Notes under the pieces: generated by a model
What the model was told of the DNA's origin: nothing
The model's input: only the letters and a program-made list of their open reading frames with translations
The model's database searches: none
In this document: positions 137-36,342 of the stretch, in pieces
How positions within the stretch are numbered: position 1 is the stretch's first letter
Layout of the letters: every line of letters begins with the position of its first letter
Assembly (NCBI GenBank): GCA_947623735.1
Contig: CANQHE010000009.1
Coordinates: forward strand, 1-36,495
Reading direction: 5' to 3'
Source: an uncultured Bacilli bacterium
Lineage (GTDB): Bacteria > Bacillota_I > Bacilli_A > RF39 > UBA660
DNA: 36,495 nucleotides
Translations under genes and position numbers: made by a program

Positions 137-1615
137 TTATGAAGTTTCTACTATATATGGATCTGTTGTGGTTCCTGAGCCTGATAATTTAACATTAGCC
201 TTTAAATTTATTACAGGACGTACTCCCTGGCCGGTGCCTTGCGCACCGCCGCCGTTAAGTTGTCCGTCGTTGCACAAAATGAACATGCGAGCATAGCCGC
301 TGAAAAAAAGCTGTGGAGACATGGTCCAATAATATTTATCAGTTTTTAACCAATAGTTCGCATTTGCTGTCCCTCCAAAGCCTCCAGCATATACTACTTC
401 ATCACTGGTAATTAATCCAACTGGCACTGGCAAAGCATTATTTCCTTCTACAGTTCCATTATTTGATTTCATTCCTTTTGAACTTGGGCCTGTATACAAA
501 TCTCTTTTTTGAGCATTTTTGTCTAGTTTTTTGTCTATAACATCATACCCACATTTTAATGTTGGAGTTTGTGGATTTGCAACATTTGTGCTTCCACTCT
601 GCCATACTCTATCTATTCCAGCATATGCTGTTTGCTGTGTTCCATAACCTGAGCCACTATAATTCCCATGGTTGCCTTTTGCTAAACTACTATCACTACA
701 AAAGCCTGTATCTACATCTATATACTGTTCTAATAACTCTCCTAAATTTGTATCTTCATTATACCATAATTCTATTTGGACTAAAGCATCGCTTTTGGTA
801 CTTTGACTATCCACTTTATGAGCATCATCAAAATCTACACTTGCTTTTTCTTTTTCTCCAGGATACATATATCCTACATATTTATTATCATTAGCTATTT
901 GATTAAAATATACAGCCATCTTATAATCTTCAGTGCTACTTATTTACTTTTTTGGTTTTATCATTGTTGTATTTCCTGTTGTCGCTGGAGCCTGAGAAGT
1001 ACTACCGCTTGTTCCAGCATAGATTAATCTTATAGTTCCATTTCCATTAATACGTATAATCCTCCACCATATATATTTATCTTCATCTGAAGTATCTTTT
1101 CCAAATACTAACCAGTTATTGTCGACTGTTCCTCGATAATAGTAACTTGTTCCAAAATCATCTTCAACTTCATATACTCCATTTTGTTTCATATTTGTCC
1201 CATTTCCACCACAATTTTCAGAATTTGCCTCACAACTAGGACCGGTAAATTCTTTCACTTCACCATTTGAGGTTATATTAAGTTTAGCTAAAGTTTTTCC
1301 ACTCTCTGTTAAATCAAAATATAAATAACAACTCGTATTATCTTTAGTTAAATTACTTAATTTTAAACTATTTGTATTACTATTCCATTTAGGAATTGCT
1401 CCATTACTACATTTACTCTTACTACTATTTAAAACATAATCTCCTTTAGGTATAGCATTTGTTTTTTCATAAGTTCCATCTTTTTCAATATATAAAGCCA
1501 TCTTATTATTAGCCATAATATCTTTTTCATTTAAAGTTTTGGTTTTACTACTAACAAACATTACTCCTAAAGTAACTCCAAAACTAATTAATACTAAACA
1601 TATTTTCTTTATCAC
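137..1615 (-). pseudogene. Secreted lectin-like variable surface protein, split by an in-frame stop
   Basis: The two track ORFs (944-1615 and 137-919) are one reading frame. The first ends ...TMIKPKK with TAA, and eight codons later the same frame continues into MAVYFNQ. The intact paralogue at 22132-23562 has Tyr where this TAA lies, so one base change (TAT/TAC to TAA) explains the break. The N-terminus has a GTG start preceded by AAGGAAG and a hydrophobic signal or anchor segment. The middle holds the conserved WWRIIRINGNGTIRLIY block, and the C-terminus holds PVPVGLIT, YWTMSP and GVRPVINLK motifs around a hypervariable stretch. By family resemblance this is a C-type-lectin-like fold of the kind targeted by diversity-generating retroelements (inference). 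It could be a true pseudogene, a strain-level nonsense allele or a sequencing error. Confidence 0.7.
218..313 (-). other. Candidate DGR variable region (copy A)
   Basis: Coding segment between the conserved TMSP and RPVINLK motifs. A hand count gives about 56 G+C in 99 bases, against an AT-rich gene on both sides. Codons run GGC GGC GGT GCG CAA GGC ACC GGC, as expected if NNC/NNT codons came from AAC/AAT by adenine mutagenesis. The residues are unlike those of the two paralogues at the same place. Confidence 0.5.
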
Positions 1616-20105: not shown

Positions 20106-22130
20106 CTATTCAGTTACAACAATATAAGGATTAGTACTAGTTCCAGGATCTCCATCACTTTCAATTTTAATTTTAACTGTTGACTTTAAGTTTATTACGG
20201 GACGAGCACCATAGTTATTGCCGTTCACATCAGTGCTGCCGAGAGAACCATCTCTATACACACTGAACACGACAGCATTCGGATAGAAATGCGGAGACAT
20301 TGTCCAATAGTATTGATTTGTATATAACCAGCAACCATTATTCGCCTGACCAGCAAATCCCCCTGCGTGTATTACTTCATCCATCGTAATTAAACCTACC
20401 GGTACAGGAAGTGCATTATTTCCTTCCACTTTGCCATCAATTCCTTTTGTTCCTCCTACTGTTGCATTTGGCCCTGTATACAAATCTCTTTTTTGTGCAT
20501 CTACACTGACTTCTTTTGTCTTGTAATCTACTCCACATTTGAATGTAGCAATTTGTTCATCTGTTTTCCAACTTGGACTTTCACTTTGCCATACTTTTTC
20601 TCCACCATATACTGTTGCTGTATTTTTCCAACCCAAGTCTCCTGTCCCTGGATAATAAGGTCCATGATTTGTTGTTGTATATGTTCTATCTCCACAAAAT
20701 CCTGTATCTACATCTATTTTAGTTGCTAATTCTTTTAAATTAGTCTTATTTTCATACCAATATACTATTTCATCTAATATTGTACTTTTCGTTTCTGGTT
20801 TATGTGCTGTCTCATAGCTTGCACTTATCTGGCCATCTTGACCTCCAAACATATATCCTACATATTTATTATCATTATAATTTGTATTAAATCTTACTGC
20901 TCGAGGATATGAACTACCTCCAATATTTTGCCTTGGTGTTATCATTGTATCTACACCCTGAGTACTTGGGGCAGTTTTTTTATCACTACTTGTTCCAGCA
21001 TATATTAACCTTATTGTTCCATTTCCATTTATTCTGATTATCCTCCACCAGATATATTTATCTCCATCTGAAGTGTCTTTTCCAAAGACTAACCAATTAT
21101 TATCTACTGTTCCTCTATAGTAATAACTCGTTCCAAAGTCATCTTCGGCTTCATATACTCCATTTTGATTCATATTTATAGTTCCACCACAATTAGAGTT
21201 ATTATTACAACTTGGACCTGTAAAACTATCTACTATTCCTTCTTCAGGAGTTATTCCTAAATTATCGAGTACATCTTTACTTGTTGGCTTATTTTTAAAA
21301 TATAAACTACAGTCTGTTCCACTTTTATTTAAATTATTTACTACTAAACTCCAATCGCTTTCATCCCATGTTGGTTTAGCTTCATTTGTACATGTACTTT
21401 GTTCTTCATCTAATATGTAATTTTCTTCACTTGTTGGAAGTGAATCTACTTTCTCATTATTGATATATACACCGATTATATTTACATCTGCTTCAGCATC
21501 ACTTGCTACACCTTGTACTTTTCCACTAAAGGAACCTTCTAAATCTCCATTTTGATTACTATCTAAATTTGGATATTCTAATATTAAATAATAATATATT
21601 GTATTACCACTTTCCGTTGCTGTGATCATTTCATTCATTGCTAAAGATATTGTTTGTTGTTCCGCTTTACTTTCTACTGTTCCACTTCCAACTAAATCTG
21701 TTAACTGAGTTTCATTTGTTATTGTACATTCTTCATTTAAATATTGAGCTCCATTTTGTACTTTAGTTTTTACTTCACAGTTAGTACTTATATTTTCTAT
21801 TTCTGTTTCACTTCGATATATTTTAAAATTTAAAGGAGTTGTTAAACTATTTGTTCCTACCCATTCTAAATTAAATACTACTAACTGATTATCTCCTGTT
21901 GCGGTTGCTGTTATTTTAGTTATGGTTCTATGTCCTGGATACATATTTAAATCTTCTAACTGTGGTGCTCCATCTATTATAAGTTCTGCTCCATTTATAT
22001 TAGCGGTTGTTGCTTTTGTTACTGCTCCTTTTCCATCAAACAAAGTTTTACCTACAAAATAAGCAAAAGCAACACCTATTCCAACTAGAAGAATAGCAAC
22101 TAGTAATGTTAACTTTTTATTCTTTTTCAT
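20106..22130 (-). CDS. Large lectin-like variable surface protein (copy C)
   Basis: 674 residues. The N-terminus is MKKNKK plus one hydrophobic segment (about 7-26), then a beta-rich extracellular domain of about 200 residues (YPGHRTITKI, NLEWVGTNSL, YYYLILEYP) that recalls TasA/camelysin-type SipW-dependent proteins. From about residue 310 it follows the same plan as copies A and B: paired Cys, DDFGTSYYYRGTVDNNW, WWRIIRINGNGTIRLIY, DVDTGFCGDR, PVPVGLIT, YWTMSP, variable segment, ARPVINLK. Its ATG follows the copy B stop by one base, with GAGGGGG as ribosome site. It is probably displayed on the cell surface and binds an unknown ligand. Confidence 0.7.
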   Translation of the reverse strand: MKKNKKLTLLVAILLVGIGVAFAYFVGKTLFDGKGAVTKATTANINGAELIIDGAPQLEDLNMYPGHRTITKITATATGDNQLVVFNLEWVGTNSLTTPLNFKIYRSETEIENISTNCEVKTKVQNGAQYLNEECTITNETQLTDLVGSGTVESKAEQQTISLAMNEMITATESGNTIYYYLILEYPNLDSNQNGDLEGSFSGKVQGVASDAEADVNIIGVYINNEKVDSLPTSEENYILDEEQSTCTNEAKPTWDESDWSLVVNNLNKSGTDCSLYFKNKPTSKDVLDNLGITPEEGIVDSFTGPSCNNNSNCGGTINMNQNGVYEAEDDFGTSYYYRGTVDNNWLVFGKDTSDGDKYIWWRIIRINGNGTIRLIYAGTSSDKKTAPSTQGVDTMITPRQNIGGSSYPRAVRFNTNYNDNKYVGYMFGGQDGQISASYETAHKPETKSTILDEIVYWYENKTNLKELATKIDVDTGFCGDRTYTTTNHGPYYPGTGDLGWKNTATVYGGEKVWQSESPSWKTDEQIATFKCGVDYKTKEVSVDAQKRDLYTGPNATVGGTKGIDGKVEGNNALPVPVGLITMDEVIHAGGFAGQANNGCWLYTNQYYWTMSPHFYPNAVVFSVYRDGSLGSTDVNGNNYGARPVINLKSTVKIKIESDGDPGTSTNPYIVVTE
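20202..20291 (-). other. Candidate DGR variable region (copy C)
   Basis: Segment between TMSP and RPVINL of copy C. A hand count gives roughly half G+C, far above the flanks, and the residues (HFYPNAVVFSVYRDGSLG...) share little with copies A and B beyond scattered F, V, D, G and L positions. Confidence 0.45.
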
Positions 22131-22131
22131 A

Positions 22132-23562
22132 CTAGACTGCCCCCTCTACTATATATGGATCTCCATCTACTCCAGTACCTGTTATTTTAACATTAGCCTT
22201 TAAATTTACTACTGGGCGAGCTCCAAGAACATCGCTCCCTGTTTCGTTACCAAGGATTACACCAGTATCCCGTACAGAAAACATAGCTGCACGACTGCTG
22301 GAAAACCAATATGGAGACATGGTCCAATAAAATCTGTTTGTATATAACCAATATGCATTGTTAGCTGTTCCTCCAAAACCTCCAGCATATATTACTTCAT
22401 CTACTGTTATTAAACCAACTGGTACTGGTAGTTTGTTGTTTCCTTCTATATTATTTCCATTACTTCCCTTAATTGCTCTAGCATTTGGGCCTGTATACAA
22501 ATCTCTTTTTCTTGCGGCTTCATCTGTTGAATTATCTGAATTATATCCACATTTTAACGTAGGAAATTGAGTTTTTTTCCAACTCCCATTATACAGTCTT
22601 TCCAATGATGCATACGCTGTTTCTTGCGTTGAAATTCCTTGACCAGTATATCCTGGTACTGCAGTTGTAACTTGCCTATCGCCACAAAAACCCGTATCTA
22701 CGTCCAAGTAATCATTAGCTAAGCCACTTAAATTTGTCCTATTTTCATACCAATATTTTATTGTATCTAACACAGTACTATTGTTAGCATTAGTATGTGT
22801 TTTTTCAAATGTATTTTGTCCTGTTGCTCCTGTCATATATCCAACATATGTATTACTACCATAATTTTGATTAAAATATACAGCCATTTTATATTCTTCA
22901 GTATTGTTTATATAAGTTTGTGGTTTAATCATTGTTCCATTTCCTGTTGTTTCTGGTGTTTGAGAAGTACTACTACTTGTCCCAGCGTAGATTAACCTAA
23001 TTGTACCATTTCCATTAACTCGGATTATCCTCCACCAGATATATTTATTCTCATCTGAAGTATCTTTTCCAAAGACTACCCAGTTATTATCTACTGTCCC
23101 ACGATAATAATAACTTGTACCAAAATCATCTTCGGCTTCATATACTCCATTTTGTGATAATGGGCAATTATTTTCACAGCTTGTTCCAGTAAATTCTTTT
23201 ACTTCACCATTTGATGTTAATCCTAATTGATTTAATACTTTTCCACTTTCTGATAAATCAAAATATAAGTAACAACTAGTATCATTCTTGGTTAAATTAC
23301 TTAATTTTAGTTTATTATTTGTATATGTTGGTTTGGCTCCATTACTACATTTACTCTTACTACTTAAAACATAGCTACTACTTGTAGGTATATTTTCACT
23401 TTTTTGATACCCACCATCTTTACTTTCAACATATATAGCCATTGTATCTTTATACTTTGCTATAGAAGTAGTATCTAATGTTTTTGTTTTATTACTTTTT
23501 ATACTTAAAGTAATACCCCCTATACTTACTAAACATATTATTAATAATATTGTTTTTTTCAT
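22132..23562 (-). CDS. Lectin-like variable surface protein (copy B)
   Basis: 476 residues and intact: a signal or anchor segment (about 3-21), the Ser/Lys/Cys-rich SKSKCSNGAKPTY block, paired Cys (CENNC), the conserved WWRIIRVNGNGTIRLIY block, DVDTGFCGDR, PVPVGLITVDEVIYAGG, YWTMSP, a variable segment and GARPVVNLK, ending in GDPYIVEG. It is the full-length reference for the broken copy A. It heads a two-gene operon with copy C; ribosome site AAGGAAG. By analogy to DGR targets the C-terminal part would be a C-type-lectin-like fold displaying the variable residues; this is inference. Confidence 0.7.
   Translation of the reverse strand: MKKTILLIICLVSIGGITLSIKSNKTKTLDTTSIAKYKDTMAIYVESKDGGYQKSENIPTSSSYVLSSKSKCSNGAKPTYTNNKLKLSNLTKNDTSCYLYFDLSESGKVLNQLGLTSNGEVKEFTGTSCENNCPLSQNGVYEAEDDFGTSYYYRGTVDNNWVVFGKDTSDENKYIWWRIIRVNGNGTIRLIYAGTSSSTSQTPETTGNGTMIKPQTYINNTEEYKMAVYFNQNYGSNTYVGYMTGATGQNTFEKTHTNANNSTVLDTIKYWYENRTNLSGLANDYLDVDTGFCGDRQVTTAVPGYTGQGISTQETAYASLERLYNGSWKKTQFPTLKCGYNSDNSTDEAARKRDLYTGPNARAIKGSNGNNIEGNNKLPVPVGLITVDEVIYAGGFGGTANNAYWLYTNRFYWTMSPYWFSSSRAAMFSVRDTGVILGNETGSDVLGARPVVNLKANVKITGTGVDGDPYIVEGAV
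22216..22311 (-). other. Candidate DGR variable region (copy B)
   Basis: Segment between TMSP and RPVVNL of copy B; about 48 G+C in 99 bases by hand count, with residues unlike copies A and C. Confidence 0.45.
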
Positions 23563-30473: not shown

Positions 30474-30648
30474 ACAAGTTGTAATTGATTGCTTTGTGAA
30501 GATTTTATTCGAGGAACATATAAGTCAGTCTAAATTATGACATCATGAATAGCTTTGTGAAGAATTTATTCGAGGAACATATTAGTCTATTCGCTGTTAT
30601 AAAGGCTGTAATGAAATGAAATAATTTCATTCAGTCTTTTTTTTGTTA
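30474..30648 (+). ncRNA. Small RNA with two 36-nt direct repeats
   Basis: Predicted transcript between a good promoter and a strong terminator (AATGAAAT/ATTTCATT stem extended by CTG/CAG, then eight T, 30603-30648). It contains two copies, 61 bases apart, of GCTTTGTGAAG-W-TTTATTCGAGG continuing AACATA (30491-30526 and 30552-30587), differing at three or four bases. No ORF of useful length spans it. I do not recognise the RNA family. Confidence 0.6.
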
Positions 30649-30778
30649 ATCTATAATAAAAAATAAAAGATTTAATAATGTATTTATGAGTATAAATAAA
30701 AGTATTCGAATAATTTAGATAAGAAAACTTAACTGCTGAGCGCTTGCCAACTTTCGATTAAAAAGAAGGCTTGATATT

Positions 30779-30868
30779 ATGAAGAAAAAAATTTTATTAA
30801 TCTCTTATCTAATATTAATTATCATTTTATTAATAGTCTCTTTAATAATTCTATGTATAAAAAAATAG
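30779..30868 (+). CDS. Small hydrophobic peptide, candidate type I toxin 1
   Basis: A 29-residue ORF, MKKKILLISYLILIIILL... ending CIKK: a lysine-capped single membrane helix, as in type I toxins. GAAGG lies before the ATG. The mRNA leader (30721-30770) is almost the same as that of toxin 2, with CTTTC upstream able to pair near the ribosome site. The 3' region (30895-30934) is complementary to the leader (CTTAACT.../AGTTAAG), so 5' and 3' ends would pair. A minus-strand RNA overlaps the 3' end. Its own promoter is poor (AATAAT at -10). Confidence 0.65.
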   Translation: MKKKILLISYLILIIILLIVSLIILCIKK

Positions 30869-30949
30869 CATAGATTAAGTGCTTACCCTACTTTAAGCAA
30901 GTACTCAACTCAGCAAAGTTAAGTCTTCCTTTTTGCAAGTTTCCTTGCT
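30858..30949 (-). ncRNA. Candidate antitoxin RNA 1
   Basis: Minus strand promoter TTGCTA-N17-TATATT (30956-30984). The RNA would begin with the hairpin GCAAG-GAAA-CTTGC and run over the toxin 1 3' untranslated region to a short hairpin (AGCA/TGCT) with seven T inside the end of the toxin ORF. The terminator is weaker than that of antitoxin 2. Confidence 0.55.
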
Positions 30950-30955
30950 ATATTA

Positions 30956-30984
30956 AATATATCACAAATAAGTAATTTTAGCAA
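30956..30984 (-). promoter_or_regulatory. Promoter of antitoxin RNA 1
   Basis: Minus strand TTGCTA, 17 bases, TATATT. Confidence 0.6.
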
Positions 30985-31014
30985 TAAAAATGTTTAGTAT
31001 AAAGTATAAAATTC

Positions 31015-31043
31015 TTGTATAAATAGTGATTATTTGATATAAT
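31015..31043 (+). promoter_or_regulatory. Promoter of toxin 2 mRNA
   Basis: TTGTAT, 17 bases, TATAAT; the conserved leader shared with toxin 1 begins just after it. Confidence 0.75.
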
Positions 31044-31106
31044 TTAGATAGGAAAACTTAACTGTTGAGTGCTTGCCAACTTTCTATTAGAAAGGAGGCT
31101 GATGAT

Positions 31107-31190
31107 TTGTATAAGAAAGATTTTTTAATTTTATCTCTTATTCTAATTATCTTCTTACTCATAGCCTTACTTTTTACTTTAGTAATTTAG
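31107..31190 (+). CDS. Small hydrophobic peptide, candidate type I toxin 2
   Basis: A 27-residue ORF with a TTG start: (M)YKKDFLILSLILIIFLL... ending FTLVI. AAAGGAGG is a very strong ribosome site, and CTTTC-TATTA-GAAAG forms a hairpin next to it that could hide it. The in-frame alternative ATG four bases earlier gives only eight residues, so TTG is chosen. It is a paralogue of toxin 1 in the same orientation. The mRNA 5' leader and 3' end (31251-31288) are complementary over about 25 bases with gaps, and the RNA ends in a T run. Confidence 0.68.
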   Translation: MYKKDFLILSLILIIFLLIALLFTLVI

Positions 31191-31204
31191 TAACCTATAT
31201 TAAG

Positions 31205-31312
31205 AAAAAAGCACTCAATCTAGCATAGATTGGGTGCTTACCAATATAACGGCAAGTACTCAACTCAGCAAAGTTAAGTCTTCCTTTTTTATTTTATGCC
31301 ATTTTCTCTGAC
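31205..31312 (-). ncRNA. Candidate antitoxin RNA 2
   Basis: Minus-strand RNA of about 108 bases from a promoter at 31319-31347 to a textbook terminator, GCACCCAATCTA/TAGATTGAGTGC then six T (31205-31237). It is fully complementary to the 3' untranslated part of the toxin 2 mRNA, the arrangement of txpA/ratA-type type I systems in Bacillus. Confidence 0.72.
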
Positions 31313-31318
31313 AAATAC

Positions 31319-31347
31319 ATCATAACATAAAAACGACCTTTTTACAA
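31319..31347 (-). promoter_or_regulatory. Promoter of antitoxin RNA 2
   Basis: Minus strand TTGTAA, 17 bases, TATGAT. Confidence 0.7.
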
Positions 31348-31357
31348 GTCGTTTTCT
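31328..31357. terminator. Hairpin, likely bidirectional terminator
   Basis: AAAACGAC/GTCGTTTT arms with T residues after it on both strands. It overlaps the antitoxin 2 promoter, and a second perfect hairpin TACTCGAA/TTCGAGTA follows at about 31364-31383. It would end transcripts from the kinase gene. Confidence 0.55.
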
Positions 31358-36125: not shown

Positions 36126-36342
36126 ATTATCTCTCCCTAACTTAAAAAAAGATGGCTACCAAAGGGCGAATAATCCGCGGTACCACCTTTTATTTTACTT
36201 ATAATTTTAACGCTTTCCAGCGGGATTTTAATCCAAGCTCCCAAGCAACCTTCAGAATTTTAGCTTACTTATCTCTCACCCTTAATAAGCTCTCTTTAAA
36301 GCATCAATTCTTACTCCTCTTGTTCTTTGCTTTTTACGTCTA
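36126..36342 (-). promoter_or_regulatory. T-box riboswitch of valS
   Basis: Minus strand leader with the conserved antiterminator sequence AAGGTGGTACCGCGGA (36172-36189 region), a competing terminator GGTGGTACC/GGTAGCCATC followed by seven T (36144-36187), and an upstream stem I with AGTA and AGAGAGC/GGTGAGAG features. The candidate specifier is GTT (Val) in GAAGGTTGC, though exact register was not modelled. Uncharged tRNA-Val would favour the antiterminator and switch valS on. Confidence 0.88.

What the first reader, a model, noticed from the sequence alone, without database searches (positions are those of the whole stretch)
30700..31350. Two tandem type I toxin-antitoxin modules
Each unit has a lysine-tipped 27-29 residue membrane peptide, a shared mRNA leader with a hairpin at the ribosome site, complementary mRNA ends, and a minus-strand RNA from its own promoter that covers the toxin mRNA 3' end. 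The second module is very clean: promoters on both strands with 17-base spacing and a perfect antisense terminator (GCACCCAATCTA/TAGATTGAGTGC, six T). The layout matches txpA/ratA-like systems, while the peptide sequences look new.
Basis: partly seen in the sequence, partly recalled or inferred. Interest (0 to 1): 0.82.

Follow-up and report, generated by a model that had tools for sequence, protein, structure and literature searches.

The report
Large gut-bacterial type I toxin-antitoxin family
The two short repeats are one intact and one decaying copy of a large, apparently undescribed family of RNA-controlled toxin genes in uncultured gut bacteria: each encodes a tiny membrane peptide beside an antisense RNA that should silence it.

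Summary
It has promoters on both strands with 17-base spacing, a 27-codon membrane peptide, a near-perfect foldback between the two mRNA ends (fold z = -8.4), and an antisense RNA of about 108 nt with its own terminator. Module 1 (30709-30984) looks decayed. Its mRNA promoter is poor, its foldback is the weakest of 76, and it is the only copy with an intact-length ORF that lacks the antisense-terminator hairpin. It alone has lost the otherwise invariant Asp5. It keeps a good antisense promoter.

The family is large. A leader model matches 30 of 36 genomes of the genus and 199 of 288 of the order, all one family of uncultured gut Bacilli, with up to 15 matches per genome. No genome outside that family matched among 395 sampled across the class. 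Peptides are under purifying selection (pN/pS 0.23-0.31), the foldback covaries (0/500 shuffles), and antisense promoters are conserved. At least eight leader/3'-end pairs with distinct sequences share this design, driving at least four unrelated membrane peptides. In the genus, no intact toxin lacks the antisense end, but at least 13 antisense ends lack a usable toxin.

Best reading: a new, lineage-restricted, txpA/RatA- and bsrG/SR4-like type I toxin-antitoxin radiation. Toxicity and transcription are untested.

The parts
31015..31043 (+). module 2 toxin mRNA promoter (TTGTAT-17-TATAAT)
   Evidence: conserved in family
31050..31077 (+). module 2 mRNA leader; pairs with the mRNA 3' end (foldback)
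31080..31099 (+). module 2 Shine-Dalgarno hairpin (CTTTC/GAAAG then GGAGG at 31094-31098)
31107..31190 (+). module 2 membrane peptide ORF (27 aa, TTG start), putative toxin
31205..31237 (-). module 2 antisense RNA terminator (hairpin + T6)
   Evidence: helix 5
31252..31289 (+). module 2 mRNA 3' end: local hairpin, leader-complementary, T run
31205..31312 (-). module 2 predicted antisense RNA (antitoxin), about 108 nt, ends inferred
31298..31312 (-). module 2 hairpin at the predicted 5' end of the antisense RNA (varies in a compensatory way in relatives, by eye)
31319..31347 (-). module 2 antisense promoter (TTGTAA-17-TATGAT, extended TG)
30709..30714 (+). module 1 degenerate mRNA -10 (AATAAT); no good -35
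30721..30748 (+). module 1 mRNA leader, pairing weakened
30779..30868 (+). module 1 peptide ORF (29 aa), lacks the otherwise invariant Asp5
30859..30883 (-). module 1 remnant of antisense terminator (12-nt deletion relative to relatives)
30897..30934 (+). module 1 mRNA 3' end, identical to module 2 over 38 nt
30956..30984 (-). module 1 antisense promoter (TTGCTA-17-TATATT, extended TG), retained

Best explanation
Module 2 is an intact type I toxin-antitoxin locus and module 1 a decaying copy of one. The plus strand makes a short mRNA for a single-span membrane peptide that is presumably toxic when over-made. The two ends of this mRNA pair into a long foldback. From the other side, a minus-strand promoter beyond the mRNA terminator makes an antisense RNA of about 108 nt, fully complementary to the mRNA 3' region and ended by its own hairpin. 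The antisense RNA should bind the mRNA 3' end, displace the leader and create a long duplex for RNase III. In class A, freeing the leader lets its GCC pair with the GGC after the Shine-Dalgarno sequence, which lengthens the hairpin hiding that site. This would be a BsrG/SR4-like double action of decay plus translation block. Shown here: anatomy, conservation, covariation, gene-loss asymmetry. Inferred: transcripts, toxicity, RNase III, the refolding step.
For: Conserved peptide: pN/pS 0.23-0.31 in six groups, with the second codon position least variable in each. KKD invariant in 95 of 95 parsed copies. Foldback: 89.9% of cells paired in 73 class-A copies, 26 pairs with double changes, 0/500 shuffles, slid controls 38-50%. 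Cognate leader:3'-end pairing is strongest in 8 of 8 classes, mean -31.2 against -14.4 kcal/mol for non-cognate; it also beats 5000 of 5000 permutations within class A. Antisense promoter scoring at least 9 of 12 in 84% of copies against 26% in shuffles, with 17-nt spacing in 97 of 108. Antisense terminator hairpin in 104 of 106. Asymmetric loss: of 40 strong toxin-start matches, 36 have the antisense end, one is at a contig end and three have broken toxins, while at least 13 antisense ends lack a usable toxin. SD opening becomes costlier when the antisense-covered region is masked, 5.14 to 6.83 kcal/mol in class A. In published B. subtilis systems antitoxins bind mRNA 3' ends and SR4 extends SD sequestration (PMC6562991).
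Against: No RNA or toxicity data. Promoters are consensus matches. The SD-refolding effect is modest, not independent across related sequences, and not seen in class C (p = 0.34). Class B units (about 430 bp) have sharp boundaries in unrelated flanks, so part of the spread may be selfish dispersal. The orphan count rests on inspection of sequences and a model threshold.
Confidence: 0.85

Rival explanations
1. A MITE- or REP-like repeat whose inverted ends and hairpins serve mobility; the peptide ORF is incidental.
For: Multi-copy, dispersed, ends complementary; class B copies have sharp boundaries in unrelated flanks; tandem pairs are common.
Against: Peptide under purifying selection. The complementary ends coincide with transcript ends lying inside the promoters, not with the outer boundary of the unit. 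Both promoters and two one-way terminators are conserved. No obvious target-site duplication by eye. Toxin halves, not antisense halves, are lost.
Confidence: 0.05
2. A small membrane peptide with a regulatory or stress role, tuned by antisense RNA, not a toxin.
For: Toxicity is not shown; some type I peptides act at low dose; strong conservation.
Against: At least four unrelated hydrophobic peptides sit on the same control RNA. Toxin genes are readily lost while antisense genes stay. One would not expect antisense-only remnants for a beneficial peptide.
Confidence: 0.1
3. hok/aapA-type control within a type I system: the foldback hides the SD and 3' trimming activates translation; the antisense RNA only blocks the activated form. 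(A rival for the mechanism only, compatible with the toxin-antitoxin reading, so its confidence is not exclusive of the best explanation.)
For: The 5'-3' long-distance interaction and the conserved alternative local hairpins (93% paired) recall AapA and hok (PMC6733600).
Against: In the folding model the SD is not harder to open in full-length than in 3'-truncated mRNA: class A 5.2 against 7.9 kcal/mol, 0% of copies harder. The antisense RNA targets the 3' end, which trimming would remove.
Confidence: 0.2

Closest known systems
txpA/RatA and bsrG/SR4 (B. subtilis)
   Same: Convergent antisense RNA from its own promoter, paired over about 100 nt with the toxin mRNA 3' region; small membrane peptide; hairpin at the SD; bsrG/SR4 antisense binding extends SD sequestration (PMC6562991)
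   Different: Peptide shorter (22-30 aa) and unrelated by profile search; chromosomal and dispersed rather than prophage; many sequence classes of one design; near-perfect foldback of mRNA ends
aapA/IsoA (Helicobacter pylori) and hok/sok
   Same: 5'-3' long-distance interaction of the toxin mRNA; alternative local hairpins; several copies per chromosome (PMC6733600)
   Different: Here the antisense RNA covers the mRNA 3' end, and the foldback is not predicted to hide the SD
C. difficile CD2517.1/RCd8 type modules
   Same: Convergent overlapping toxin and antisense genes; short hydrophobic peptides (PMC6563280)
   Different: C. difficile peptides are 30-56 aa with a Lys-rich tail and widespread in phages and prophages; none of our searches found viral or plasmid copies
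par/Fst (RNAI/RNAII) of E. faecalis
   Same: Convergent toxin mRNA and small antisense RNA
   Different: Two separate one-way terminators here rather than the shared bidirectional one recalled for par; NF033608 does not match these peptides although it finds Fst

Membership tests
type I toxin-antitoxin (general) | small hydrophobic protein conserved as a protein | tested here: met
type I toxin-antitoxin (general) | cis antisense RNA gene with own promoter and terminator overlapping the toxin mRNA | tested here: met
   at sequence level only:
type I toxin-antitoxin (general) | toxin gene not kept without its antitoxin | tested here: met
   36 of 40 paired, the four others at a contig end or with broken toxin; at least 13 antitoxin-only loci
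type I toxin-antitoxin (general) | peptide is toxic and the antisense RNA suppresses it | not testable with these tools
   needs expression experiments
txpA/RatA-bsrG/SR4 group | antisense pairs with the mRNA 3' region | tested here: met
   layout
txpA/RatA-bsrG/SR4 group | toxin homologous to TxpA/BsrG | tested here: inconclusive
hok/sok and aapA/IsoA | 5'-3' long-distance interaction | tested here: met
hok/sok and aapA/IsoA | the interaction hides the SD until 3' trimming | tested here: not met
   computed only
par/Fst | Fst-type peptide (NF033608) | tested here: not met
known RNA family (Rfam) | match above gathering score | tested here: not met

The most novel reading that the evidence does not exclude
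One RNA control chassis (foldback mRNA plus 3' antisense RNA) has radiated into at least eight leader/3'-end pairs whose pairing parts do not cross-match and carries at least four unrelated membrane toxins, up to about 15 per genome, in a single family of genome-reduced gut Bacilli: a modular type I system in which the toxin can be exchanged while the control RNA is kept.
Probability: 0.6. Interest if true: 0.75.

Novelty: new member of a known kind. Interest (0 to 1): 0.64.

Why it matters
Type I systems are hard to predict, and the papers I could read place them in few phyla (PMC12390103). This is a large family, apparently undescribed in the literature held here, with hundreds of copies, in uncultured gut bacteria with small genomes. 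Eight leader/3'-end pairs that do not cross-pair give a natural data set for how antisense specificity diverges. The repeated loss of toxin with retention of antitoxin is a clear evolutionary trace of addiction.

Tried and rejected
Known-family membership: no Pfam, NCBIfam, PHROG or Rfam match. Phage or plasmid carriage: no match to the class-A pattern in IMG/VR and none in plasmids; one 28-nt coincidental match in two phage records of the same length. Mobile-repeat reading: sharp class-B units but no target duplication seen, and selection on the ORF. Hok-like SD hiding by the foldback: not supported by accessibility calculation. Structure prediction was not tried because the window peptides are under 30 residues. 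No paper on type I systems in RF39/Tenericutes gut lineages was found in the held library.

Full report
What is there. Two related cassettes lie between two minus-strand genes, at 30716-30934 and 31045-31295, 73% identical. Folded as RNA, module 2 forms a nearly uninterrupted helix between its two ends (-78.8 kcal/mol, z = -8.4, 0 of 200 shuffles). The antisense RNA also folds better than chance (z = -4.2).

Module 1 is not equivalent. Its mRNA promoter is poor (best match 8 of 12). Its foldback is the weakest of 76 class-A copies (-25.0 against a mean of -38.7). It lacks the 12 nt CACTCAATCTAG that make the 5' arm of the antisense terminator in relatives such as L025. It is one of two copies of 106 without a good antisense terminator; the other has a frameshifted toxin. 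Its peptide has Ile where all 95 parsed relatives have Asp5. Its antisense promoter is good (TTGCTA-17-TATATT). I read module 1 as a toxin gene in decay with its antitoxin half kept.

The family. The window's genome has five full copies of a sister class (86% identical) and members of two further classes (L244, L245). A pattern of leader, SD and start found over 111 stretches in GTDB species genomes, the listed ones from MAGs labelled mostly as uncultured Bacilli or Tenericutes, many from rabbit or ruminant gut (host read from the record titles). An 84-position leader model finds 30 of 36 genomes of the genus, 199 of 288 of the order (78 of 102 genera, up to 15 matches per genome) and 23 of 395 across the class, all in one family. 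From memory, an order with one such dominant family of small genomes fits GTDB RF39/UBA660, but the tools gave no names. The pattern was absent from IMG/VR, and the module 2 cassette had no match in plasmids and none of note in phages.

Selection on the peptide. In six peptide groups pN/pS is 0.23-0.31, and second codon positions vary least in all of them. Length groups of 22, 24, 25, 27 and 29 aa share MxKKD(F/L)LI followed by an Ile/Leu-rich span.

Selection on the RNA. On 73 class-A cassettes the module 2 structure pairs in 89.9% of cells; 26 of 47 pairs show changes on both sides. No shuffle of 500 reaches any of the five measures, and sliding the partners drops pairing to 38-50%. The structure was taken from one of these sequences, which favours it against the slid controls; relatedness can inflate the shuffle result, so the two controls should be read together. 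The local alternative hairpins of leader and 3' end are also kept (93% of cells). Between classes, leaders pair with their own 3' ends far better than with others: eight of eight rows and columns, -31.2 against -14.4 kcal/mol (representatives and segment ends were chosen by me). Within class A the cognate pairing beats all of 5000 permutations. The hairpin at the 5' end of the antisense RNA changes in a compensatory way (CAAG/CTTG to GAAG/CTTC, read by eye). Antisense promoters score at least 9 of 12 in 84% of copies against 26% in dinucleotide shuffles and 29% on the other strand of the same segment; 97 of 108 have 17-nt spacing.

Modularity. The mRNA-3'-end/antisense-promoter model (R2) also finds cassettes with the same layout and unrelated peptides: MKTKTFIIKVLRLIAIILFLLIIMIVVIKK, MRKSEKYLCSIIILLIIVILIILIKIVPTV, MTKRELSLFIIILLLFFVVITLLFK with the similar MTKREMTQFIIIILLFILVFVILFR, and MEYLVILVVLILVLKQDNTPKN. 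'Unrelated' is by inspection; short hydrophobic peptides can hide distant kinship, and none matches a known family. The last of these has one example and is the least certain.

Addiction signature. Of 40 strong leader/toxin-start matches in the genus, 36 are followed by the antisense end. The other four are at a contig end (G020:C37) or carry a broken toxin (G028:C36, 12 codons; G013:C1, 16 codons; G011:C3, stop lost and Asp5 changed). In contrast, at least 13 antisense ends stand without a usable toxin (for example L046, L243, L255, L257, L259, L265, L268, L274, L276, L277, L278, L281, L286). An antitoxin can be left over when its toxin is lost, whereas the reverse should be selected against, and that is what is seen.

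Mechanism. In the full-length model the leader GCC is taken up by the foldback; with the antisense-covered region masked, GCC pairs with the GGC after the SD and the SD stem grows by three pairs (module 2 structures). The cost of opening the SD rises from 5.14 to 6.83 kcal/mol over 73 class-A copies; class C shows no clear effect. This resembles the step described for bsrG/SR4 (PMC6562991) and differs from hok/aapA, where the foldback hides the SD (PMC6733600): here the SD is if anything easier to open in the full-length RNA. I therefore favour antisense binding at the 3' end, RNase III decay, and in class A an added translation block. All of this step is inference from folding.

Limits. No transcript, no toxicity test, MAG-based genomes, consensus promoters. 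Related sequences are not independent, so p-values are indicative only. The literature search covered an open-access library only.

Noticed in passing
window 30480-30645 (+): Two 39-nt direct repeats (GCTTTGTGAAGAtTTTATTCGAGGAACATATaAGTC, 92% alike) followed by a terminator-like hairpin and T8; looks like a small RNA gene, no Rfam match.
   Followed up: no
L009-L013, about 110 bases upstream of class B promoters: Class B units share an upstream block with several AAATCTG/CAGATTT repeats and a minus-strand terminator-like palindrome; the unit of about 430 bp has sharp edges in unrelated flanks, suggesting dispersal by an unknown route.
   Followed up: partly
window 30897-30934 and 31252-31289: The 3' ends of the two modules are 100% identical over 38 nt although the modules are 73% alike overall, so each antisense RNA could act on both mRNAs, or recent gene conversion occurred.
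   Followed up: partly
G012:C18 and C73, G014:C14, G032:C6 (L159, L160, L171, L248): Tandem pairs of modules, of the same or of different class, recur in other genomes.
   Followed up: partly
window 36159-36336 (-): T-box leader (RF00230) upstream of a valyl-tRNA synthetase-like gene.
   Followed up: no
window 137-1615 and 20106-23562 (-): Repeated secreted-looking proteins with a shared WWRIIRINGNGTIRLIYAGTS region.
   Followed up: no
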